Shown here piece by piece: positions 1 through 49,680 of a stretch of 64,000 nucleotides of DNA; the stretch's first letter is position 1, and every line of letters starts with the position of its first letter. The notes beneath the pieces were generated by a model, which was given only the letters and a program-made list of their open reading frames with translations, had not been told where the DNA came from and did no database searches. Where the stretch lies: assembly GCF_017302985.1 (NCBI RefSeq), contig NZ_JAFIMU010000007.1:930001-994000 (forward strand). Reading direction: 5' to 3'. This DNA comes from Corallococcus macrosporus. GTDB taxonomy: Bacteria; Myxococcota; Myxococcia; Myxococcales; Myxococcaceae. The position numbers and the translations under genes were made by a program.

Positions 1-984
1 CACGAACAGCGTCTCCCGCAGGCTGCGCCCCACCAGCGGACTGCCAGGGGGAACGCCCACCTCCGCGAGCATCGACTCCGGCCCCTCCAGCTCCGCGTCC
101 GACAGCCGCACGTCCGGCCGCAGCGCCAGCCCCCGCAGATCCTTCACCCGCAGGATGTCCTCGCGCCGGCCCTCCACCAGCAGCCGCTCCTCGCCCGTCA
201 GCACGTATGCCGGCTTCGCGTTGAGCGTCTCGCCGCCCAGCACCACGCCAATCACGCGCAGGCCCAGCCCTTCCGTCAGCTCCGCCAGGGGCTTGCCCAC
301 GTAGCTCGAGTCCCCGGGCACCACGGCCTCCGTGAGGTACTCGCGCAGCGCGAAGCCCTCCGTGCCCGGCTTGCCCTCGCGCGCGGGCAACAGCCGCCGC
401 CCCAGCAGCACCACCACCGCGATGCCGATGAGCACCACCGGCAGCCCCACCGGGGCCAGCTCCGTCACGCCAATGGGCGCCATCCCCTGCCGCTTCAGCG
501 CCGCGGACACCACCAGGTTCGTGGACGTGCCGAACAAGAGCACCGTGCCGCCCAGCATGGACGCGTACGCCAGCGGCAGCAGCACCTTGCTGCGCGGCAC
601 CTTCGCCCGCTGCGCGGCGCCAATGGCCACCGGCAGGAAGGCCGCCGTCGTCACCGTGTTGGAGATGAACGCGGAGAAGAACGCCACCACGCCCATCATC
701 GCCAACACGAACACCTGGGGGCCGAAGCGCGCGAAGAACGCCATCCGCTGCCCCACCACCTGCACCACGCCCGTGGCGGCGAGCCCCTGCGTCATCGCCA
801 GCAGGGTGAAGATGAAGATGACCGTGTCGTTGCTGAAACCCTCGAACGCCTGCGCCGGCGTCAGCACCCCGGACAGCGCCAGGAGGCACACCACCCCCAG
901 CGAGGTGAACTCGATGGGGATTGAATCCAAGGAAAACAGGACCAACGCGACGACAATGACGGCCAGGACGAGGGCAATGGACAT
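1..984 (-). CDS. SLC13-family anion permease with TrkA-C (RCK_C) domains, 3' end cut off
   Basis: This gene reads from an ATG at 984 to the window edge, giving 328 residues without a stop, so the C-terminus is missing. The start MSIALVLAVIVVALVLF is a hydrophobic segment. It is followed by SLC13/DASS-type permease features: FSNDTVIFIFTLLAM, then FISNTVTTAAFLPVAIG, and the GTSTNLVVSAAL loop that resembles the family's sodium/anion-binding SNT-type motifs. After about residue 205 the chain becomes soluble, with a GDSSYVGKPLAEL stretch and a second one near the edge (GSPLVGRSLRE), typical of tandem RCK_C domains between the two permease halves. The family imports di- or tricarboxylates, sulfate or similar anions in symport with sodium; the substrate cannot be read here. 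A GAGAGGG-like ribosome site lies about 13 bases upstream. The gene diverges from pckG across about 270 bases. Confidence 0.85.
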   Translation of the reverse strand, partial: MSIALVLAVIVVALVLFSLDSIPIEFTSLGVVCLLALSGVLTPAQAFEGFSNDTVIFIFTLLAMTQGLAATGVVQVVGQRMAFFARFGPQVFVLAMMGVVAFFSAFISNTVTTAAFLPVAIGAAQRAKVPRSKVLLPLAYASMLGGTVLLFGTSTNLVVSAALKRQGMAPIGVTELAPVGLPVVLIGIAVVVLLGRRLLPAREGKPGTEGFALREYLTEAVVPGDSSYVGKPLAELTEGLGLRVIGVVLGGETLNAKPAYVLTGEERLLVEGRREDILRVKDLRGLALRPDVRLSDAELEGPESMLAEVGVPPGSPLVGRSLRETLFV

Positions 985-1250
985 GGCGTAGGTGCGTCCC
1001 TCTCAAGTTGGGCACGCCATGACGCGTTGACAGTGCGTGCCGCACCGCGCCGTTTACTGATGGGCGACCGGGCGCTGATAAGTGGAATTAGGCCAGAGCG
1101 GTCGAAAGTCCGGTTGACTGCCCGACGTCGGTTGCTTTTGGGGCCCCGGTCCAGAAGGTTTGGTGTTCCTTCCGCTGTAGGGTTTCCCCCCCTCGCACAG
1201 AAGCGGGAACGCGGGACACCCCACGCATGAGACACCCCGAGGAGACCTCC

Positions 1251-3044
1251 ATGGCTTCGACGCAAGCGGCCGCCGCCACCGAGCAGGCGCCCACGAAGAA
1301 CCCCACGCTGCTGGCCTGGGTGGCCAAGATGGCCGCGATGACCCAGCCGGACCGCATCGTCTGGTGTGACGGCTCGGAGGCGGAGAAGCAGCGCCTCACG
1401 GAGCAGGCCGTGAAGGACGGCACGCTCATCCCGCTCAACCCCCAGAAGCGCCCCGGCTGCTATCTGCACCGCTCCAACCCCAACGACGTGGCGCGCGTCG
1501 AGCACCTCACGTTCATCTGTACGCCCAACAAGACGGACGCGGGCCCCACCAACAACTGGATGGAGCCGGAGGCCGCCTACACGAAGCTCTCCCAGTTGTT
1601 CGAGGGCTGCATGAAGGGCCGCACCATGTACGTGGTGCCCTACGCCATGGGCCCGCTGGGTGGCCCGTCCACGAAGATTGGCGTGGAGCTGACGGACAGC
1701 GACTACGTGGTCCTCAACATGCGGATCATGACCCGCATGGGGAAGGCCGCGCTGGACATGCTGGGCGACAGCGACGACTTCAACCGCGGCCTGCACTCCA
1801 CGGGCGACGTGAACCCGGACCGCCGCTACATCTGCCACTTCCCCCAGGACAACACCATCTGGAGCTTCGGCTCCGGCTATGGCGGCAACGTGCTGCTGGG
1901 CAAGAAGTGCCTCGCGCTGCGCATCGGCAGCTACCTGGGCCGTGAGGAGGGCTGGCTCGCGGAGCACATGCTCATCCTGGGCGTCACCTCTCCCAAGGGT
2001 GAGACGACGTACATCGCCGCGGCCTTCCCGTCCGCGTGCGGCAAGACGAACTTCGCCATGATGATCCCGCCCAAGGAGTACGCGGGCTGGAAGATTGAAA
2101 CCGTCGGCGACGACATCGCGTGGATGCGCCCGGGTCCGGATGGCCGCCTGTACGCCATCAACCCGGAGGCCGGCTACTTCGGCGTGGTGCCGGGCACCAA
2201 CTACAAGACCAACCCCAACGCGATGGAGACCATCGCGAAGGACACGCTCTTCACGAACGTGGCGCTCACGCCCGACGGCGACGTCTGGTGGGAGGGCAAG
2301 GACGGCGAGGTCCCGGAAGAGCTCATCGACTGGCAGGGCAAGCCCTGGAAGAAGGGCAGCACGGAGAAGGCGGCGCACCCGAACAGCCGCTTCACCGCGC
2401 CCATGAGCAACAACCCGGTGCTGTCCGGCAAGGCGAACGACCCCCAGGGCGTTCCCATCAGCGCGCTCATCTTCGGCGGCCGCCGCTCCAACACGGTCCC
2501 GCTGGTCATCCAGGCCTTCAACTGGACCCACGGCGTGTTCCTGGGCGCCACCATGGGCTCGGAGACGACGGCGGCGGCCACCGGCAAGGTGGGCGTCGTG
2601 CGCCGCGACCCCATGGCCATGCTGCCCTTCTGCGGCTACCACATGGGTGACTACCTCCAGCACTGGCTGGACATGCAGAAGTCCATCCCGCAGCTGCCGA
2701 AGATCTTCCAGGTCAACTGGTTCCGCCAGGACAAGAACGGCAAGTTCATCTGGCCGGGCTTCGGTGAGAACATGCGCGTCCTCGAGTGGATCGTGAACCG
2801 CGTCCACGGCCGCGTCCCCACGCAGGAGACGCTGCTGGGCTGGGTGCCGCGCCAGGACAACGGCCTGAACCTCAAGGGCCTGGACCTGTCCGAAGAGGCC
2901 ATCCAGGAGGCCACCTCCATCAAGGAGGACGAGTGGAAGTCCGAGCTCAAGAGCCAGGAGGTCTTCTTCGAGCAGCTGGGCACCAAGGCCCCCGAGGCCC
3001 TGATGCTCCAGCGCAAGCTGCTCATCGCGCGCCTGGACGGCTGA
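1251..3044 (+). CDS. pckG: phosphoenolpyruvate carboxykinase (GTP)
   Basis: This cytoplasmic enzyme converts oxaloacetate and GTP to phosphoenolpyruvate, CO2 and GDP, the first step of gluconeogenesis. The 597-residue length fits the GTP-dependent family. The phosphate-binding loop FPSACGKTN is at residues 259-267, followed by the metal-binding GDDIAW segment. The C-terminal [25 protein letters not shown] and FCGYHMGDY blocks are hallmark GTP-PEPCK sequences. I chose the ATG at 1251 because GAGGAG lies 8 bases upstream; an in-frame ATG at 1227 would add eight residues and has no good ribosome site. The gene stands alone, with a terminator directly after it. An amino-acid-eating myxobacterium needs this enzyme to make sugars from TCA intermediates. 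No identifiable operator is visible upstream. Confidence 0.97.
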
Positions 3045-42583: not shown

Positions 42584-43870
42584 TCAGGCCGCCTCCAGCA
42601 GGCGCAGGAAGGCCCGGGCGGCGTCGGCGTCGCTGATGCCCTGGAGCCCCTCGCTGACCTGCAGCTCCGTGGACACGACGCCAGGCACGCGCGTCTGTCC
42701 GAAGCCCCCCGCCACCCAGACGCGGTCCTCGCGCGCGATGCGGTCGCGCTGGCGGTTGTACGCCTGGGGTGAGCCCCGCAGGAACACGTGGAACATGTTC
42801 GTCTGCACCGGCTGCGGCAGCACGGTGACGCGCGAGTCCGCCGCGATGAGCGTGGTGAGCGCCTTCGCGCGCTTCACGTAGCCGGGGATGGCCGCGAGCG
42901 CCGCGTCGAAGCGCATGGCGGCGGAGGCCACCAGGGGAGCCAGGTGGTACAGGTTGCCGCCGTGCCGGTGGCGCCACACGCGCGCCTCCTTGATGAAGTC
43001 GCGGCTGCCCACCAGCATGGCGCCGCCGATGCCGCCCACCATCTTGTAGAAGGACACGTAGACGGAGTCGAAGCCCTTGCAGATGTCCGCGTAGGAGCGG
43101 CCGTAGAAGGGCTGGCTCTCCCACAGCCGCGCGCCGTCCATGTGCAGCTTCACCTTCCGGTCGCGGCAGGTGCGCTTGAGCTCCTGGAGCTGCTCCCACG
43201 TCTGGAGCTGCCCGCCCAGCCAGCGCACCGGCAGCTCCACGCTGACGCTTCCCAGCACGTCGCGGGCGTTGGCCACGTCCTCCGCCAGCAGCGGCCGCGT
43301 CCACGGTCCCAGGTACACGGCGCGCAGCTGGTGCAGCACGGAGTACGCGTCGTCCTCGTGCAGCACGTGGTGCGACGACGGGTGCACGCCCACGGTGCGC
43401 ACGTTGCTCGCGTCCGCGTAGATGCGCAGCGCGATGAGCTGCGCCATGGTGCCCGTGGGCATGAAGCACGCGTCCTCGAAGCCCAGCAGGTCCGCGACCT
43501 TCTTCTCGAAGGCCTGCACGAAGTCGCCGTTGCCGTAGACGTCGCTGGACAACTTCTGGCGCTGCATCCACTCGCCGATGCGCGCGTACTCCGCGCCGTC
43601 GTCGGAGCTGGAGCGCACCGGCAGGGACGCGGTGCAGGACTCCCGCAGCTTCTCGTACTCGGCGGGAGACATCGCCGGTGCGGCCCCCTTGGGCCCCGCG
43701 ACGCCCGCGTCCGACGCGGGGACTCCCACGAGCCCGGGCGACTTCACGGTGCGCAGGGACGGCGTGCCCCCGTCGGCGGCCGCCTCGCCGCGCTTCGGGA
43801 ACAGCGTGAAGCCCGCGAGCAGGCTGGTGAGTGCGAGGAACTCCGCGCGGCTGAAGCGACTGTCCTTCAT
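42584..43870 (-). CDS. threonine-aldolase-like PLP enzyme with N-terminal export-type segment
   Basis: A 428-residue beta-eliminating-lyase/low-specificity threonine aldolase fold. The PLP lysine is Lys 276 (SFYKMVGGIGGAML), the pyridine-nitrogen Asp is Asp 245 (LHMDGARLW), and HPSSHHVLHED near 163-173 fits the family. The N-terminus (DSRFSRAEFLALTSLLAGFTLFP) resembles a Tat-type signal but has only one arginine, followed by a spacer of about 60 residues, so it may be exported or membrane-tethered. It starts at ATG 43870 (GGAAGGG upstream), 26 bases after the FAD gene, last in the operon that begins with the AdoMet decarboxylase. The substrate is unknown. Confidence 0.82.
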   Translation of the reverse strand: MKDSRFSRAEFLALTSLLAGFTLFPKRGEAAADGGTPSLRTVKSPGLVGVPASDAGVAGPKGAAPAMSPAEYEKLRESCTASLPVRSSSDDGAEYARIGEWMQRQKLSSDVYGNGDFVQAFEKKVADLLGFEDACFMPTGTMAQLIALRIYADASNVRTVGVHPSSHHVLHEDDAYSVLHQLRAVYLGPWTRPLLAEDVANARDVLGSVSVELPVRWLGGQLQTWEQLQELKRTCRDRKVKLHMDGARLWESQPFYGRSYADICKGFDSVYVSFYKMVGGIGGAMLVGSRDFIKEARVWRHRHGGNLYHLAPLVASAAMRFDAALAAIPGYVKRAKALTTLIAADSRVTVLPQPVQTNMFHVFLRGSPQAYNRQRDRIAREDRVWVAGGFGQTRVPGVVSTELQVSEGLQGISDADAARAFLRLLEAA

Positions 43871-43896
43871 GTGCCCTTCCCTCCCGCTTCCGGTGG

Positions 43897-45531
43897 CTAC
43901 AACCAACTGGCGCTCGTACGCCCCATTCCCGCCAGGGCCCGCTCCGCGGCCTGGACGCCGAACCAGTTGGCCTCCTCGAAGAGGGCCATGCCGCCCAGGT
44001 CCGTGTGCGCGAAGTGCAGGTGCCGTCCCAGGCTCTGTTGCGCGGCGCGGCGCGCGTCCCCCCAGAGGAAGCCCGGTTGGGGGCGCACCATGGCGTGGCC
44101 CCAGCGCTGCACCTCCAGCCGCTGCGCGAGCGCGCCCACCCCGGGATGCGCCGGCAGCAGGTCCGCCATCACCAGCGCCTCCCAGTCCCCGTACGTCGCC
44201 AAGAGGGCCTTATTGCGCTCCGCCTTCACGTCCGCGCCGGCCATGGGCAGGTACCAGGTGAGCACCGTGGGCCCGCGCTCGTCCTGGCGCAGCGTCTGGT
44301 GCGTGGCCACCACGTAGCCCAGGCTCTGGCTCTCGTAGAAGACGTTGTCCCAGGCCAGCGGGAAGCCGCGCGACGCCGGCGGCGCGGACACCGTCAGGTT
44401 CGCCACCACCCACGGGCTGTAGACGAAGGCATCCAGCCACGCGGGCCGAGCCTCGCGCCACGGCGCCACCACGTGCGCGGCGACGAAGCGCGGGCACGCC
44501 AGCACCACCTGCCGGGCCTGGAAGGCGCGGGGCGCCCCGGTGCGCGCGTCCAGCGCGTGCACGCGGCAACCGTCCTCGCCCGGCTCCACCGTGTGCACCA
44601 GCACCTGCGTCTCCAACTGGCGCGGGCCCAGCGACGACGCCAGCTGCTTCACCAGCCGGCCGTTGCCCTCGGGCCAGGACAGGAAGCCGTCGCTGCGCTC
44701 ACCCTTCCCATTCTGCCGGGCGGCGAAGTACCAGATGCCCGCCCAGGCGGAGACGTGCTCGGACGTGGTGCCGTAGTCGTCGCGGCACGCGTAGTCCACG
44801 AACCACTTGAGCCGGGGCGAGCGGAAGCCCTCCGCCTCCATCCACGCCGCCATGCTCACCCGGTCCAGCGCGGTCCACTCCGCGTCGTCGCTGGAGAGCG
44901 CGCCGGGCACCGCGAAGGCCTTGCGCCCCTTCGCGTCGCGCGCGGCGGCGAAGGCGTTCATCCGCGCGTCGAAGCGCTCCAGCTCCGCCAGGTCCCCGGG
45001 GCTCGCGCCCGCGCGCAGGTACAGCCCCTCGTACCAGTGGCCCTTGTAGAAGACGCGCTCGTCGGGCTCCTGGATGAGCAGCTCCTCCGCGAAGGACGGG
45101 TGCCCTTCCGCGTCCACGCCGGTGACGGCGTCCATCTCGCGCAAGAGGCGCATCACCGGCCCGCGGTCCTCCAGCGGGGACGGCAGGTAGTGCGCGCCCC
45201 ACGGGAACGCGGACACGCCGTTGCGGCCGGAGCGCGACGTGCCCCCGGCCTCCGCCTCCAGCTCCACCACGCGCACGTCCTTCACGCCCGCGGCGGTGAG
45301 GCGCCACGCGGCGGACAGCCCGGCCGCGCCCGCGCCGACAATCAGCACGTCCACCGGCTCGAAGGCCTGCGCGCGCGGCAGCGGCCCCGTGCGCAACTTG
45401 TGACCGGTGTCCACCGCCCGGTCCACGATGGCGCCCGGCACCGGCGCGCGAGGAGCCTGGGACCGCGTACAGGCGCTCGCCACGGAGGCGCCCAGGAACG
45501 CGGCCACCAGCTCGCGCCGCGTCAGTTCCAC
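43897..45531 (-). CDS. Tat-exported lipoprotein FAD-dependent amine-oxidase-like enzyme
   Basis: A 544-residue flavoprotein. The N-terminus VELTRRELVAAFLG has a twin-arginine pattern at residues 5-6, and a lipobox-like ASAC places Cys 21, so it is likely a Tat lipoprotein. The FAD-binding motif is VLIVGAGAAGLSAAWRL (66-71) with Glu 90 for ribose; ARQVVLACPRF and FLSWPEGNGRLVKQLA fit the amine-oxidase/NAD(P)-binding superfamily. It starts at GTG 45531 with GAGGAG 7-8 bases upstream and overlaps the aminopropyltransferase gene by 10 bases. It may oxidise an amine made by its neighbours (inference). Confidence 0.85.
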   Translation of the reverse strand: MELTRRELVAAFLGASVASACTRSQAPRAPVPGAIVDRAVDTGHKLRTGPLPRAQAFEPVDVLIVGAGAAGLSAAWRLTAAGVKDVRVVELEAEAGGTSRSGRNGVSAFPWGAHYLPSPLEDRGPVMRLLREMDAVTGVDAEGHPSFAEELLIQEPDERVFYKGHWYEGLYLRAGASPGDLAELERFDARMNAFAAARDAKGRKAFAVPGALSSDDAEWTALDRVSMAAWMEAEGFRSPRLKWFVDYACRDDYGTTSEHVSAWAGIWYFAARQNGKGERSDGFLSWPEGNGRLVKQLASSLGPRQLETQVLVHTVEPGEDGCRVHALDARTGAPRAFQARQVVLACPRFVAAHVVAPWREARPAWLDAFVYSPWVVANLTVSAPPASRGFPLAWDNVFYESQSLGYVVATHQTLRQDERGPTVLTWYLPMAGADVKAERNKALLATYGDWEALVMADLLPAHPGVGALAQRLEVQRWGHAMVRPQPGFLWGDARRAAQQSLGRHLHFAHTDLGGMALFEEANWFGVQAAERALAGMGRTSASWL

Positions 45532-47018
45532 CGGCGCCACTCCTCTTCGTAGTAGTGCACCAGCACCTGGTTGTTCAGCCGGTTCACCTCCGCGGGCAGC
45601 GGCGCCATGTCCGGCGAGAAGCGCGTGAGCCCCTCCAGCGTGTCCTCGTCCAGGAACGCCAGCCCCTCCGGCAGCGGGCGCTGACGGCCGGCCGCCTCCT
45701 GCGCCACCAGCACGTAGCCCCACTCCCCGAAGGACGGCACCAGCGCGTGGTAAGGCTGCGTCCAGAAGCCCGCCGCCTTGAGCGTGGTCTCCACGCACCA
45801 GAACGAGCGCCGCGCGAACAGGGGGCTGGTGCTCTGGATGACCGCCACCCCGCCCGGCGCCAGGCGCTTCTTCAAAATCTTGTAGAAGCCCGTCGTGTAC
45901 AGCTTCCCCAGCGCGAAGTTGTTGGGGTCCGGGAAGTCCACCACCACCACGTCCCAGTTGTTCGTGCCTTCCGCCAGGAACTGCATCGCGTCCGTGTTGA
46001 TGACGCGCATCTTCGGGTGCGTCATGGAGTGGTGGTTGAGCGCCGCCAGCTCCTTGTAGCCCGTGGCGAGCCCCGTGATGGCGGGGTCCAGGTCCACCAG
46101 CGTGATGGACTTCACCTCCGGATACTTCAGCACCTCGCGCGCCGCGAGCCCGTCCCCGCCGCCCAGAATCAGCACGTGCTCCACCTTCCGCGCGCGCACC
46201 ATGGCCGGGTGCACCAGCGACTCGTGGTAGCGGTACTCGTCGATGCTGGCGAACTGGAGGTTGCCGTTGAGGAACAGCGAGAACCCCCGCTTGCCGCGCG
46301 TGACGATGATGCGCTGGTAGGGGGAGCTCGTGGCGTGGACGACCTCGTCCGCGTAGAGCTGGTCCTCGTAGAACGTGGTGAGCCGGTCCCCCAGCGCGAA
46401 GCACACCAGCAGCCCCGCACACAGCACCACCGCCTTGACGCGCAGGCGCACGGGGTTCGCCAGCACGGGCGCGAGCAGCCACGTGCTCCACAGCCCCACG
46501 CCCGCGTTCAGGAGGCCGAAGAGGAGCGACGTGCGCACCAGGCCCAGCTTGGGCACCAGCAGCAGCGGGAAGGCCACGCTGGCGGCGAGCGCGCCCAGGT
46601 AGTCGAACGTCAGCACCTGGCTGACCAGGTCCTTGAACTTGAGCTGGTCCTGCAGGATGCGCAGCAGGAGGGGAATCTCCAGCCCCACCAGCGTGCCGAT
46701 GGCCAGCACGCTGCCGTACAGCACCACGGGGAACACGCTGGTGAGCGTGAAGGTGAGGAACAGCATCGGCGCGCACAGCCCGCCGAGCAGGGCCACGGCC
46801 AGCTCGATCTCCACGAAGCGCTGGGCCACCCCGCGCTCCACGAAGCGCGACAGGTAGCTGCCGATGCCCATGGCGAAGAGGTAGCCGCCAATGACGGTGG
46901 AGAACTGGGTGATGCTGTCCCCCAGCAGGTAGCTGGCGAGCGTCCCGACGATGAGCTCGTAGATGAGCCCGCACGTCGCGATGACGAGGACGGTGAGAAA
47001 GAGCAGCGTCTTGTTCAA
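45522..47018 (-). CDS. membrane-embedded spermidine-synthase-like aminopropyltransferase
   Basis: A 498-residue protein in two halves. The N-terminal about 1-205 has six or seven membrane helices (LLFLTVLVIATCGLIYELIVG, IGGYLFAMGIGSYLSRF...). The C-terminal about 225-498 is a polyamine aminopropyltransferase/methyltransferase fold: RIIVTRGKRGFSLFLNGNLQFASIDEYRYHESL, GGGDGLAAREVL (286-297), Asp 309 for AdoMet/dcAdoMet, and DFPDPNN (Asp 361, Asp 364) at the usual catalytic position. The start is probably TTG 47018, 13 bases after the DUF350 stop; no upstream ATG opens with family sequence. With the AdoMet decarboxylase four genes upstream, aminopropyl transfer is plausible. Confidence 0.85.
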   Translation of the reverse strand: MNKTLLFLTVLVIATCGLIYELIVGTLASYLLGDSITQFSTVIGGYLFAMGIGSYLSRFVERGVAQRFVEIELAVALLGGLCAPMLFLTFTLTSVFPVVLYGSVLAIGTLVGLEIPLLLRILQDQLKFKDLVSQVLTFDYLGALAASVAFPLLLVPKLGLVRTSLLFGLLNAGVGLWSTWLLAPVLANPVRLRVKAVVLCAGLLVCFALGDRLTTFYEDQLYADEVVHATSSPYQRIIVTRGKRGFSLFLNGNLQFASIDEYRYHESLVHPAMVRARKVEHVLILGGGDGLAAREVLKYPEVKSITLVDLDPAITGLATGYKELAALNHHSMTHPKMRVINTDAMQFLAEGTNNWDVVVVDFPDPNNFALGKLYTTGFYKILKKRLAPGGVAVIQSTSPLFARRSFWCVETTLKAAGFWTQPYHALVPSFGEWGYVLVAQEAAGRQRPLPEGLAFLDEDTLEGLTRFSPDMAPLPAEVNRLNNQVLVHYYEEEWRRWN

Positions 47019-47031
47019 AGCGTCACGTGTT

Positions 47032-47259
47032 TCAGCCGCTGATGGCCGCCGCGATGATGATGGCCAGCCCCAGGATGAAGGAGCCGATGACGATGCCCAG
47101 CGCGACGTTCTGGTCGACTTCAATCTCCTTGTGCACGTCGTACGGCAGGATGAGGCGGATGACGTAGAAGCCGGCCACGAACACCGCCAGGCCGATGAGC
47201 GAATAGATGACGCTCGCCAGCACTCCCTGCAGGGTGACCACCACTCCGAGCAACAGCAT
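47032..47259 (-). CDS. DUF350 (YjfL-like) small membrane protein
   Basis: A 75-residue protein with two hydrophobic helices (LQGVLASVIYSLIGLAVFVAGFYVIRLILP and NVALGIVIGSFILGLAIIIAAAIS) separated by a short polar turn (YDVHKEIEVDQ), typical of DUF350. ATG 47259 has GGAGG upstream and shares one base with the preceding stop. DUF350 proteins such as E. coli YjfL occur beside polyamine-peptide enzymes; function unknown. Confidence 0.85.
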   Translation of the reverse strand: MLLLGVVVTLQGVLASVIYSLIGLAVFVAGFYVIRLILPYDVHKEIEVDQNVALGIVIGSFILGLAIIIAAAISG

Positions 47260-47420
47260 CACTTGCCTCCCATGAATCCACCGGTCCACAAGAGCACGCC
47301 GCCGGGACCGCGCTTCACGTCGCCGGTCACCCGCCCGCGCTCCTCGTCACTGAAGGGGGCCCACCCCGTATAGGTGGCCCACGCGTACGCCACGAGCACC
47401 AGTCCGCCCAGGAATCTCAT
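47259..47420 (-). CDS. 53-residue predicted membrane protein
   Basis: A very short gene between the DUF4178 and DUF350 genes. ATG 47420 lies in an ATGA overlap with the DUF4178 stop, and its own stop overlaps the DUF350 start by one base. Such tight packing argues that it is real. It begins with a hydrophobic stretch (MRFLGGLVLVAYAWATYTGW), then a charged and Gly-rich tail (EERGRVTGDVKRGPGG). No family is known. Confidence 0.65.
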   Translation of the reverse strand: MRFLGGLVLVAYAWATYTGWAPFSDEERGRVTGDVKRGPGGVLLWTGGFMGGK

Positions 47421-49333
47421 AGGTTGCTTTCCTTCCAGCGCTCGGTCTCGAAGCTGTTGGCGCTGAAGAACGACAGCGCCGGGATGATGATGAGCAGCAC
47501 CAGCGCGATGACGAACCAGCTCTCGTTGGGCGTGTCGTGCGTGAGCACCACCTGGTAGCTGACGATGGGACCGATCGTGGTCGCCGTGAGCTGCAGGCTC
47601 GGGTCGAACGACGTGGTCGTCCGCAGCACGTACTTGCCCTTGGGCAGCGAGGACAGGAACACGCTGCCGTCCTGGCCGCCCTCGCTCCAGGAGCCGTCGC
47701 TGTCGCGCCCGTGGTAGTAGCTCACCTCTTCGTAGAAGCTGACGACGTCCTGCGTGTCCTGGTTCACCAGGTCGCCCTGAACGCCCACCCAGGCGTTGTC
47801 GAGCGACTTCGACATGGTGATCTGCGCCCGCACGTTGCCGTCGCGCGAAAGCTCGAAGGGCTCGCTGAAGTGCATGGCGGTGGGCGTGCCGGACGCCGCG
47901 TCCCGGGGCAGCGTCACCCGCATGTCCAGCACCCGCGCGTTGAGCGCCCGCGCATGGAACACGGCCGACAGGGCGAACAGGCCCAAGAGCCACAGCGCGG
48001 ACCAGGCCAGCGTCTTCATCATCGCCGCGCGGCGCGTGTTGGGCTGGCTGGGCGCGATGCCCCGGGGCCTGGGCAGCGGCTCCTTCAGCTTGAACGCGTC
48101 ACGCACCTGCTCCGGCGTGAGGTACTCGCCATGCGTGTAGGTGACTTCGTTGTCGGTGGCGTCCTCGTTCACCGAGTACGGCGGCGCGACGTACTCCGTG
48201 GCGCGCGCCGTCTCGCCCTGGAAGACCTTCCAGTAGAACTCGCCCACCACCGCGTCGGTGACGGCGGTGACGGACTGGAAGGCCTTGTAGCGGCGGCGCT
48301 CGTAGAACGCGGACACCTGCGGCACGACGCTCGCGTCACCGGCCGCCATGGGCTTCAGGAAGACCCAGTGGCCGTTGGACTCCATCAGCCAGGTGAAGCC
48401 GCGCGCCGGGTGGTAGAGCAGGTACTCCATCCACGGGTAGCGCGTGCCCTCCACCACGCACGAGCGCTCCTGGTAGCCGATGCAGATCCACTCCGCGCCG
48501 TCGAGCGTCCCCTTCTGCCCCAGCGAGAGGGCCGCCGGCAGCTCCGGCTTCTGGAGCAGCTTGAGGAAGGCCAGCTTCCCCTGCGCCACGCTCATCAGCG
48601 CGCCGCAGTACGGGCACGCCACGCGCAGCGTCTGGTCCGGCGCGCGCAGCTCCAGGGGACCGTTGCAGTTGGTGCAGCGCGCCTGCTGCAGCTGCGCCTT
48701 GCGCACGCGCGGGCGCATCTCCCCCGCGGGGATGCCCAACTGGGACAGCTCCAGCTTCTGCCCCAGGAACACCTCCGGGTCGCGGTCGCGCGTGCCGAAG
48801 TCCAGGGTGACGAAGAGGCCGCGCGGGCCGGTGGCGTCCACGTAGTGGCTGTCCGCCGTCGGATCCACGTCGCTGGGGAGCTGGCCTTCCGCGGCGGTGA
48901 CGCGCCCGTGGCCGCGCTCCTCCACCACCAGCGGCCGGTTGCGCAGGCGCAGGCGGTCACCGGGATGGAGGCGGTCCAGGTGGATGCCCTCCTCCACGCC
49001 CGCGTCGGAGAGCAGGTGGAAGGCGCCCTCGGACTCGCTGAGCCAGCCGGTGCGGCCGTCGGACATCTCCACGTACCACTCGTCCCAGGGGCCAGCGCCG
49101 TGGTCCTTCTGGAGGTGCCCGACGATTTGAAACGAGGTGTCGTTGACGCGGCCCTCCAGCCCCAGGCGCAGCGGGGAGTCGGTCTCCACGACGCGGGACA
49201 CCTTGCCGTGGGCCTCCAGCTCCGCGCCCACGCGCGCCACCATCGTCTGGCAGTAGGCGCAGACGACCACCTGCGCGGACCCGACGGAGAACTCCACGCT
49301 CGCGCCACACGACGGACACGCCCCCTGCGTCAC
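47417..49333 (-). CDS. large DUF4178 protein with two zinc ribbons and C-terminal membrane helices
   Basis: A 638-residue protein. A zinc ribbon at the start has Cys 6, 9, 25, 28 (CPSCG...CAYC), and a second CTNCNGPL...CPYCG lies near 215-240. Two DUF4178-like beta domains lie at about 50-190 and 255-400 (EWYVEMSDGRTGWLSESEGAFHLL, MEYLLYHPARGFTWLMESNGHWVFL). Two membrane segments follow (MMKTLAWSALWLLGLFAL; FVIALVLLIIIPALSFF) with a beta-rich domain between. GTG 49333 overlaps the speD stop (GTGA), so it is coupled to the AdoMet decarboxylase. The molecular role is unknown; the topology suggests cytoplasmic ribbons and a membrane anchor. Confidence 0.85.
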   Translation of the reverse strand: MTQGACPSCGASVEFSVGSAQVVVCAYCQTMVARVGAELEAHGKVSRVVETDSPLRLGLEGRVNDTSFQIVGHLQKDHGAGPWDEWYVEMSDGRTGWLSESEGAFHLLSDAGVEEGIHLDRLHPGDRLRLRNRPLVVEERGHGRVTAAEGQLPSDVDPTADSHYVDATGPRGLFVTLDFGTRDRDPEVFLGQKLELSQLGIPAGEMRPRVRKAQLQQARCTNCNGPLELRAPDQTLRVACPYCGALMSVAQGKLAFLKLLQKPELPAALSLGQKGTLDGAEWICIGYQERSCVVEGTRYPWMEYLLYHPARGFTWLMESNGHWVFLKPMAAGDASVVPQVSAFYERRRYKAFQSVTAVTDAVVGEFYWKVFQGETARATEYVAPPYSVNEDATDNEVTYTHGEYLTPEQVRDAFKLKEPLPRPRGIAPSQPNTRRAAMMKTLAWSALWLLGLFALSAVFHARALNARVLDMRVTLPRDAASGTPTAMHFSEPFELSRDGNVRAQITMSKSLDNAWVGVQGDLVNQDTQDVVSFYEEVSYYHGRDSDGSWSEGGQDGSVFLSSLPKGKYVLRTTTSFDPSLQLTATTIGPIVSYQVVLTHDTPNESWFVIALVLLIIIPALSFFSANSFETERWKESNL

Positions 49334-49680
49334 GCCTCCACCCCTCTCGACAGCTCGCGCACGCGGCAGGACGTGGCGCCCAGGTGCTTTTGCGCCAGCG
49401 CGTCGAAGTCCGGCCGCGCGCGGGTGCGGCAGCAATACACGTTGAGCGCGGCGAAGCCGTGCTCCGGGAAGGTGTGGATGGTCAGGTGGCTTTCAGCCAG
49501 GAGCGCCAGGCCGGTGACGCCGCCGGGCTCCGGGAAGACGTGCCACTGCGGCTGGCCCACGACCTTCAGGTCCATCAAGACGACCAGCTCCTCGAAGAGC
49601 GCCGCCAGCGCGGCCGCGTCCTTGAGCCGCTCCGGCGCGCAGCCGCTCGCGTCAACCAGCCATTCCTGTCCGGTTGTCAC
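49330..49680 (-). CDS. prokaryotic-type S-adenosylmethionine decarboxylase
   Basis: A 116-residue pyruvoyl-dependent decarboxylase of the short bacterial/archaeal type. It cleaves itself at Glu 63-Ser 64 in LAESHLTIHTFPEHG; His 69 and Cys 83 match the catalytic residues. It supplies decarboxylated AdoMet for aminopropyl transfer. The start is GTG 49680, with GGAGG 8 bases upstream; a longer frame to 49854 is antisense to the cyclophilin gene. It is the first gene of the seven-gene operon, with a 75-base divergent promoter region shared with that gene. Confidence 0.92.
   Translation of the reverse strand: MTTGQEWLVDASGCAPERLKDAAALAALFEELVVLMDLKVVGQPQWHVFPEPGGVTGLALLAESHLTIHTFPEHGFAALNVYCCRTRARPDFDALAQKHLGATSCRVRELSRGVEA

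What the first reader, a model, noticed from the sequence alone, without database searches (positions are those of the whole stretch)
42584..49680. Seven-gene envelope polyamine-type operon: AdoMet decarboxylase, DUF4178, DUF350, membrane aminopropyltransferase, Tat-lipoprotein amine oxidase, exported PLP enzyme
Seen: seven minus-strand genes with successive overlaps of 4, 4 and 1 bp, a 13-base gap, a 10-bp overlap and a 26-base gap, which is strong evidence for one co-translated unit. Known: AdoMet decarboxylase makes the aminopropyl donor; spermidine synthases transfer it; DUF350 (YjfL) proteins occur beside a glutathionylspermidine-synthase-like ATP-grasp enzyme in the E. coli yjf genes. 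Here no ATP-grasp is present; instead there are a membrane-fused transferase, an FAD amine-oxidase-like enzyme with Tat and lipobox signals, and a threonine-aldolase-like PLP enzyme with an export-type N-terminus. Inference: the cluster builds and then oxidises or cleaves an aminopropylated compound at the membrane, with zinc-ribbon DUF4178 as scaffold or sensor. It does not look like ordinary cytosolic spermidine synthesis.
Basis: partly seen in the sequence, partly recalled or inferred. Interest (0 to 1): 0.8.

Follow-up and report, generated by a model that had tools for sequence, protein, structure and literature searches.

The report
Membrane aminopropyltransferase with C-terminal-lysine peptide
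A widespread bacterial envelope gene set pairs a membrane-bound polyamine-type enzyme with a tiny membrane protein that nearly always ends in lysine, suggesting the enzyme decorates that peptide's tip outside the cell instead of making ordinary spermidine.

Summary
The seven-gene run is real, with exactly the overlaps and gaps stated. Six genes (SpeD, DUF4178, a 53-aa membrane ORF, DUF350, membrane-fused spermidine-synthase-like enzyme, Tat-exported FAD oxidase) recur together in many phyla; the PLP gene was found beside them only in this genus and is judged not part. Linkage of SpeD, fused SpdSyn, DUF350 and DUF4178 was already described. New here: (1) the overlooked 53-aa ORF. A membrane-tethered, Gly-rich tail ending in Lys (GG[FY]xGGK, GGGxxGK or xHK) was found for 110 of 113 such enzymes examined, even where the genes are dispersed. 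It occurs as a short TM peptide, on DUF4178's C-terminus, or on DUF4247 proteins. (2) The enzyme's membrane part is a six-helix MFS half plus one helix, predicting an intact aminopropyltransferase domain outside the cytoplasm, with the tail and the FAD oxidase. Best explanation: dcAdoMet-dependent aminopropylation of the tail's terminal lysine, with optional later oxidation. The acceptor is inferred, not shown. A suggestive parallel: E. coli YgiC/YjfC, annotated peptide-spermidine ligases, have DUF1190 partners ending in -GG. Verdict: known orphan cluster, new central component, testable mechanism.

The parts
49330..49680 (-). SpeD-like AdoMet decarboxylase, class 1b, 116 aa; the only AdoMet_dc match found in this genome
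   Evidence: Pfam 96.5 bits; TIGR03330 83.8 vs cut-off 75.65; Ser/His/Cys at the spacing of T. maritima S63/H68/C83 (sequence; residues named in a PMC10407285 passage); single hit in own genome
47417..49333 (-). DUF4178 protein, 638 aa: zinc-ribbon-like stretches and two DUF4178 domains, then a TM helix, a soluble stretch and a second TM helix (last part read from the sequence)
   Evidence: Pfam PF13785, 2 stretches; zinc-ribbon models below their cut-offs
47259..47420 (-). 53-aa membrane-tethered tail peptide, predicted N-in/C-out, ending ..WTGGFMGGK: proposed aminopropyl acceptor
47262..47282 (-). codons of the C-terminal motif GGFMGGK; GGAGGCAAG also lies where DUF350's Shine-Dalgarno would be
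47032..47259 (-). DUF350 (YjfL-like) membrane protein, 75 aa
   Evidence: Pfam PF03994, 54.3 bits
45522..47018 (-). Membrane-fused aminopropyltransferase, 498 aa
   Evidence: NF002956 666 bits; AF2 pLDDT 92.8
46458..47018 (-). residues 1-187: six-helix half of the MFS fold
   Evidence: AF2 of residues 1-220, pLDDT 95.3; FLVCR2 8vzo_A Z 19.5, 178 aligned, rmsd 2.2
46395..46454 (-). residues 189-208: extra (seventh) TM helix, predicted to place the catalytic domain outside
   Evidence: hydrophobicity and charge profile of 110 sequences; helix in AF2
45534..46358 (-). residues 221-495: aminopropyltransferase domain
   Evidence: 1uir_A Z 35.8, 268 aligned, rmsd 1.8; Q255 D260 E261 Y264 H265 E266, D289/G290, D311 D343 D361 D364 invariant in 61 sequences
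43897..45531 (-). FAD-dependent amine-oxidase-like enzyme with Tat signal and lipobox, 544 aa; accessory
   Evidence: Pfam PF01593; twin Arg in 51 of 53 aligned sequences; directly downstream of SpdS in 40 of 80 named loci
42584..43870 (-). PLP enzyme (threonine-aldolase/beta-eliminating-lyase type), 428 aa: adjacent but judged NOT part of the system
   Evidence: 3pj0 E 1e-74; not conserved with the system

Best explanation
A conserved extracytoplasmic protein-modification system. SpeD makes decarboxylated AdoMet (dcAdoMet) in the cytoplasm. The membrane enzyme carries dcAdoMet, or receives it through its half-MFS domain (two halves in a dimer could form one 12-helix transporter) and/or DUF350, to an aminopropyltransferase domain on the outer face. 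There it transfers aminopropyl to the epsilon-amine of the C-terminal lysine of a Gly-rich membrane-tethered tail (53-aa ORF here), giving a polyamine-tipped peptide. DUF4178 scaffolds or senses. In many non-Firmicutes a Tat-exported FAD oxidase then oxidises or removes the added amine. Shown: gene content and order, near-universality of the C-terminal Lys, intact catalytic residues. Predicted: folds; catalytic domain, tail and oxidase outside. Inferred: lysine as acceptor, dcAdoMet export, action of the oxidase, roles of DUF350 and DUF4178.
For: Unbiased slot test: the most hydrophobic ORF between DUF4178 and DUF350, whatever its ending, ends in Lys in 65 of 70 loci; in the other 5 the K-ended tail is another ORF or is fused to DUF4178. 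Controls in the same loci end in K in 3/110 SpdS, 1/95 DUF350, 2/52 FAD, 2/57 SpeD. Of 11 SpdS loci with no DUF4178 in the locus, 10 genomes have DUF4178 elsewhere, with a K-ended small TM or DUF4247 protein downstream in 9 of the 9 with enough sequence. Reciprocal: two tail clusters lacking SpdS have it elsewhere at 71% identity; a third genome's SpdS contig starts with a GGGFHGGK tail. Tail fused to DUF4178 in Clostridia and Burkholderiales or carried by DUF4247 proteins. Half-MFS fold plus an extra TM helix and positive-inside charges put the SpdS domain outside. Active-site motifs conserved in 61 sequences; fold match Z 35.8. FAD enzyme has a twin-Arg signal in 51 of 53. Analogue: DUF1190 partners of the annotated peptide-spermidine ligases YgiC/YjfC end in -GG.
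Against: No modified peptide has been seen. No dcAdoMet exporter is known to me; extracytoplasmic dcAdoMet chemistry would be unprecedented as far as I recall. AF2 draws TM5 and TM6 as one 54-residue helix, so the helix count rests on hydrophobicity, charge and the MFS match, and loop 5-6 also carries some K/R. In the window and most Myxococcaceae read, the GGA GGC AAG codons coincide with DUF350's ribosome-binding site (34 of 94 tails are SD-like). The tail could be a regulatory subunit. This SpeD is the only AdoMet_dc match in the genome and nspC has none above its cut-off, so a spermidine role is not excluded. Three SpdS fusions (L099, L111, L156) gave no tail, two of them at contig ends. 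One genome (G026, 75% complete) has a tail but no cognate fusion was found; its contig ends just after DUF350. Only 40 of 80 named loci hold SpeD.
Confidence: 0.5

Rival explanations
1. The enzyme aminopropylates a small amine or an aminolipid in the outer leaflet, and the lysine-ended tail is a non-substrate subunit, for example a plug or activator whose lysine mimics a diamine in the active site.
Against: It does not by itself explain why lysine must be the last residue on three different carriers or why the tail accompanies the enzyme even when the genes are dispersed.
Confidence: 0.22
2. It is an ordinary spermidine (or related polyamine) synthase that happens to be membrane-bound; partners regulate or export the product.
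For: SpdS active-site motifs and fold; only AdoMet_dc match in the genome and no nspC match above cut-off; NCBIfam names it polyamine aminopropyltransferase.
Against: Catalytic domain predicted outside the cytoplasm; recurring DUF4178/DUF350/tail partners; the recalled abstract of Li et al. 2019 says such fusions do not complement a spermidine synthase mutant and spermidine is absent (not read here).
Confidence: 0.12
3. The C-terminal lysine is the substrate of something else, such as the FAD enzyme acting as a lysyl-oxidase-like cross-linker or a carboxypeptidase, and SpdS acts on an unrelated acceptor.
For: A twin-Arg, amine-oxidase-like enzyme lies directly downstream in 40 of 80 named loci.
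Against: No FAD gene in 17 of 17 Firmicutes loci (11 of them hold 1.6 kb or more after SpdS), while 16 of those 17 have a local K-ended tail and the seventeenth a remote one. The tail tracks SpdS, not FAD. FAD genes elsewhere in those genomes were not sought.
Confidence: 0.1
4. The GGK ending is a by-product of DNA constraint: GGAGG-AAG-TGATG is the ribosome-binding site and start overlap of DUF350.
For: True of the DNA in the window and most Myxococcaceae read.
Against: Of 94 tails 34 are SD-like, Lys codons split AAG 46 / AAA 48, 22 lie more than 60 nt before the next conserved domain or have none downstream, and xHK endings have no SD.
Confidence: 0.02

Closest known systems
AdoMetDC + MFS-SpdSyn fusion + DUF350 clusters (Li, Kurihara, Kim, Liang, Michael 2019, doi 10.1042/BCJ20190561; not held, abstract recalled, seen here only as a citation)
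   Same: Same SpeD, membrane-fused SpdSyn and DUF350; the recalled conclusion that it aminopropylates something other than putrescine.
   Different: I recall no lysine-ended tail, half-MFS topology, extracytoplasmic placement or FAD partner there, but could not check.
PspA-CesT/Tir operon groups (Ravi et al. 2024, PMC11237479; passages read)
   Same: One group has DUF4178, DUF350, 7TM-fused SpdSyn and a lipoprotein; [quoted passage not shown] the text suggests aminopropylation of other substrates.
   Different: No PspA or CesT among the seven genes here; that main text has no occurrence of 'lysine'; it lists DUF4247 under a variant of the ATP-grasp group, whereas here DUF4247 lies beside SpdS fusions (L112, L089, L146).
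E. coli ygiBC / yjfIJKLMC: ATP-grasp peptide-spermidine ligases with DUF1190 proteins (Pederick et al. 2023, seen as citations; RefSeq product names)
   Same: DUF350 (yjf operon), Gly-rich tail on a membrane-associated protein, polyamine chemistry proposed at a peptide end.
   Different: ATP-grasp amide ligase and a -GG carboxyl end, against aminopropyltransferase and an encoded -K amine here; no ATP-grasp hit in this operon.
Protein-bound polyamine modifications: hypusine in eIF5A, silaffin lysine polyamines (recalled)
   Same: Polyamine-like extension of a protein lysine.
   Different: Hypusine is internal, cytosolic and uses spermidine as donor; neither, as far as I recall, uses a membrane-fused aminopropyltransferase.
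Soluble spermidine/thermospermine synthases (1uir, 6bq2)
   Same: Catalytic fold and motif residues.
   Different: No half-MFS domain, soluble, small-amine acceptors.

Membership tests
AdoMetDC/MFS-SpdSyn/DUF350 clusters (Li 2019) | class 1b AdoMetDC with catalytic Ser/His/Cys | tested here: met
   residue numbering from the passage
AdoMetDC/MFS-SpdSyn/DUF350 clusters (Li 2019) | SpdSyn domain fused to an N-terminal MFS-type membrane domain | tested here: met
   (six-helix half plus one helix, not a whole 12-helix MFS)
AdoMetDC/MFS-SpdSyn/DUF350 clusters (Li 2019) | DUF350 gene in the cluster | tested here: met
   64 of 80 named loci
AdoMetDC/MFS-SpdSyn/DUF350 clusters (Li 2019) | no spermidine made by the fusion | not testable with these tools
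   needs metabolite analysis
PspA-CesT/Tir SpdSyn operon group (Ravi 2024) | DUF4178 + DUF350 + 7TM-SpdSyn | tested here: met
PspA-CesT/Tir SpdSyn operon group (Ravi 2024) | PspA and CesT/Tir chaperone in the operon | tested here: not met
   none of the seven proteins matches them
PspA-CesT/Tir SpdSyn operon group (Ravi 2024) | Ctha_1186 lipoprotein | tested here: inconclusive
   the 53-aa TM peptide has no family hit; no Ctha_1186 model was on hand
ATP-grasp peptide-spermidine ligase systems (YgiC/YjfC) | ATP-grasp ligase gene | tested here: not met
   no ATP-grasp hit in the seven genes
ATP-grasp peptide-spermidine ligase systems (YgiC/YjfC) | DUF1190 protein | tested here: not met
   no DUF1190 hit among the seven proteins
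Aminopropyltransferases | dcAdoMet-site and catalytic motif residues, aminopropyltransferase fold | tested here: met
   (roles of the residues recalled)
Ordinary cytosolic spermidine synthesis (SpeD + soluble SpeE) | soluble SpeE | tested here: not met
   membrane-fused enzyme

The most novel reading that the evidence does not exclude
Bacteria across many phyla carry an extracytoplasmic aminopropyltransferase: a half-MFS exporter fused to a SpdS domain brings dcAdoMet across the membrane and extends the C-terminal lysine of a membrane-tethered Gly-rich tail, a new protein modification (N6-aminopropyl-lysine at a protein's C-terminus). The ATP-grasp YgiC/YjfC-DUF1190 systems would be a convergent twin that caps a -GG tail with spermidine, so that both families build polyamine-tipped membrane tethers.
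Probability: 0.4. Interest if true: 0.93.

Novelty: new variant of a known kind. Interest (0 to 1): 0.78.

Why it matters
The linkage of AdoMet decarboxylase, membrane-fused spermidine synthase, DUF350 and DUF4178 has been noted before, but its acceptor was unknown in what I could read or recall. A near-universal partner whose last residue is lysine gives a concrete candidate testable by one mass-spectrometry experiment. If right, it would be a new protein modification, a new site for AdoMet-derived chemistry (outside the cytoplasm), a role for several DUF families (4178, 350, 4247, and by analogy 1190), and a warning that SpeD/SpeE-type genes do not always mean spermidine synthesis.

Tried and rejected
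PLP enzyme as a component: rejected. GGK as a ribosome-binding-site artefact: tested and rejected for the family as a whole. Local GGK hit in L097 (328-aa ORF): chance; the real tail is beside the remote DUF4178. A loose K-end pattern also hit one unrelated 51-aa ORF in L076, a locus of a genome without SpdS match. Second DUF4178 loci of genomes that have the fusion elsewhere (L064, L073) and G031's DUF4178 locus (L067) show no tail. Second SpeD or nspC (carboxyspermidine route) in the own genome: not found above cut-off, so the spermidine rival could not be settled that way. Other Spermine_synth genes of the genome (L003-L006) show no tail within 1.5 kb. Literature: phrases such as 'aminopropyl lysine' gave 0 papers; DUF4178/DUF4247 and four phrases gave 3; Li 2019 and one further DOI were not held. 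The library is open-licence papers only, so novelty is bounded by that. Foldseek alone gave no strong PDB hit for the TM domain (best E 0.038); VIA-align then gave Z up to 19.5 over 178 residues (the tool warns that up to about 13 can be chance for helical bundles). Model coordinates are not readable here, so TM5/TM6 geometry was not inspected.


Full report
Observation. The seven minus-strand genes, overlaps and gaps are as described.

Which genes belong together. DUF4178 occurs in 66 of 117 genomes of the phylum. I fetched 40 DUF4178 loci from 38 of those genomes. Of these, 29 hold a full fused SpdS; most show DUF4178 - small ORF - DUF350 - SpdS, 19 of the 29 have the FAD gene, and the PLP gene is in 2 of 40, both of the window's genus. 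In those 80 loci (up to 6 kb each side) DUF4178 is found in 69, DUF350 in 64, SpeD in 40, FAD in 40, PLP in 0; the FAD gene is directly downstream of SpdS on the same strand in 40 of 40. PLP homologues at 64-71% identity lie in six other genomes of the family, far from DUF4178 in G083, G084 and G112, and in G008 and G028 with no DUF4178 match. So I count six genes; PLP is a neighbour seen only in one genus.

The overlooked component. The 53-aa protein has one TM segment and a variable middle but a nearly constant end, GG[FY]xGGK. In other phyla the same slot holds small TM proteins ending GGGxxGK or xHK. I then tested this without using the ending: taking the most hydrophobic ORF of at least 40 aa between DUF4178 and DUF350, 65 of 70 end in Lys. 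The five others: L070 and L103, where another ORF in the slot is the K-ended one; L134 and L145, where the tail is fused to DUF4178; L146, whose K-ended protein was not the ORF picked. In 19 further loci there is no ORF in the slot; 15 have the tail on the C-terminus of DUF4178 and 4 (L072, L074, L101, L141) have a separate K-ended protein. One search skipped the loci lacking SpdS, DUF4178 or DUF350 or with another order or strand; those with SpdS are counted below. In the same loci other operon proteins end in K in 3 of 110 (SpdS), 1 of 95 (DUF350), 2 of 52 (FAD) and 2 of 57 (SpeD).

Tests that could have failed. Eleven SpdS loci have no DUF4178 in the locus (L086, L097, L102, L107, L111, L131, L132, L137, L142, L153, L156). 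Ten of those genomes have DUF4178 elsewhere. A K-ended small TM or DUF4247 protein lies downstream of it in 9 of the 9 with enough sequence; L111's contig ends too soon. Conversely G069 and G109, which have tail, DUF4178 and DUF350 without SpdS beside them, carry SpdS elsewhere at 71% identity; G031, whose DUF4178 is not followed by a tail, has a tail ending GGGFHGGK just before DUF350 and SpdS on another contig. One case stays open: G026 (75% complete) has a tail on a contig that ends just after DUF350 (L065), and no cognate fusion was found. Six genomes have only partial Spermine_synth hits of 21-31% identity (G008, G028, G040, G044, G055, G099); in the four of them with DUF4178 loci (L069, L071, L075, L052) no tail was found. 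Overall the tail was found for 110 of 113 fusions: 94 (window included), 4 more local (L129, L134; L136, L138), 9 remote, and G031, G069, G109. Not found: L099 (contig edge), L111, L156 (no DUF4178 found).

Artefact check. In the window the last codons GGA GGC AAG run into the ATG of DUF350 and look like a Shine-Dalgarno. Among 94 tails (leaving out its two spurious second rows) Lys codons are AAG 46 and AAA 48, 34 are SD-like, and 22 lie over 60 nt before the next conserved domain or have none downstream (distances run to the domain, which starts some tens of bases after the start codon). A DNA by-product does not explain the family.

Topology. Of 23 small tails picked by hand, 21 have a positive N-side net charge, so N-in and C-out. 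In three Bacillota loci and one actinomycete locus the tail is on a DUF4247 protein; a published table lists the M. tuberculosis DUF4247 protein with a signal peptide and predicted extracellular (PMC3726780, passages). The FAD enzyme has a twin Arg in 51 of 53 aligned sequences; a looser scan found a Tat-like motif in 46 of 55 and a lipobox in 29. The SpdS membrane part (61-row alignment, pLDDT 95.3) matches six-helix halves of MFS transporters (8vzo_A Z 19.5, rmsd 2.2, 178 aligned), whose two ends are cytosolic (recalled); a further hydrophobic helix (189-208) then carries the chain out. Loops 2-3, 4-5 and 6-7 are K/R-rich in 110 sequences. So the catalytic domain is predicted outside, with tail and oxidase. 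Weak points: AF2 shows TM5-TM6 as one long helix, loop 5-6 carries some K/R, and I could not read coordinates.

Chemistry. The catalytic domain matches T. thermophilus aminopropyltransferase 1uir_A at Z 35.8, and the motif residues expected for dcAdoMet binding and catalysis are invariant in 61 sequences (their roles are recalled from soluble enzymes). SpeD keeps the Ser/His/Cys set and passes the AdoMetDC equivalog cut-off. It is the only AdoMet_dc match of the genome; nspC has no match above cut-off. A flexible Gly-rich tail ending in lysine presents a cadaverine-like primary amine, so I infer that the tail lysine is the acceptor. SpdS enzymes are dimers (recalled); two half-MFS domains could make one transporter for dcAdoMet (inference). 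No FAD gene is seen in 17 Firmicutes loci (11 of them with 1.6 kb or more after SpdS), against 40 of 63 others (34 of 52 with that much sequence), as one would expect of an O2-dependent accessory (inference).

Comparison. Ravi et al. [quoted passage not shown] 2019, which I could not read. E. coli YgiC and YjfC are annotated peptide-spermidine ligases; their DUF1190 neighbours end in SMGG and HWGG, and 11 of 15 DUF1190 proteins read, those two included, end in GG (14 loci fetched, one not recovered, ligase neighbours of these not checked). One branch may ligate a polyamine to a -GG carboxyl end, the other build on an encoded lysine. This is analogy, not membership.

Verdict. The operon is real and belongs to a described but unexplained kind. 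The lysine-ended tail and the extracytoplasmic placement are the new elements, and make the acceptor question testable.

Noticed in passing
L157-L159 (E. coli K-12) and L189-L202: DUF1190 proteins end in -GG in 11 of 15 read, most with an RGG[FY]G-like motif upstream: possible ligation site of the peptide-spermidine ligases. Ligase neighbourhood seen only for the two E. coli genes.
   Followed up: partly
window 42584-43870: PLP enzyme close to Lmo0305 (3pj0) with an N-terminal hydrophobic stretch and SRAEFL, a Tat-like motif lacking one Arg; homologues dispersed in other genera.
   Followed up: partly
window 47259-47282: Last codons of the tail peptide look like the Shine-Dalgarno of DUF350 (GGAGG..AAG TGATG) here and in most Myxococcaceae read.
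   Followed up: yes
L055, L078, L080-L083, L085, L087, L090-L092, L094, L098 and L129, L134, L145, L147: Tail fused to the C-terminus of DUF4178 in Clostridia, a Dysgonomonas and Burkholderiales among others, suggesting that DUF4178 and tail work together.
   Followed up: partly
L003, L004 (own genome): Two long ORFs (over 900 aa) with MFS-like helices and a Spermine_synth match, without tail within 1.5 kb and away from the only AdoMet_dc gene; function unknown.
   Followed up: no
named loci L077-L156: FAD oxidase not seen in 17 of 17 Firmicutes loci (11 with 1.6 kb or more after SpdS) and present in 40 of 63 others.
   Followed up: partly
L188 (Bacillus salacetis) 19-2423, minus strand: Order DUF4178, PspA-like coiled-coil ORF (named by eye), DUF4247 lipoprotein with the tail, DUF350-like ORF; SpdS lies on another contig.
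   Followed up: no
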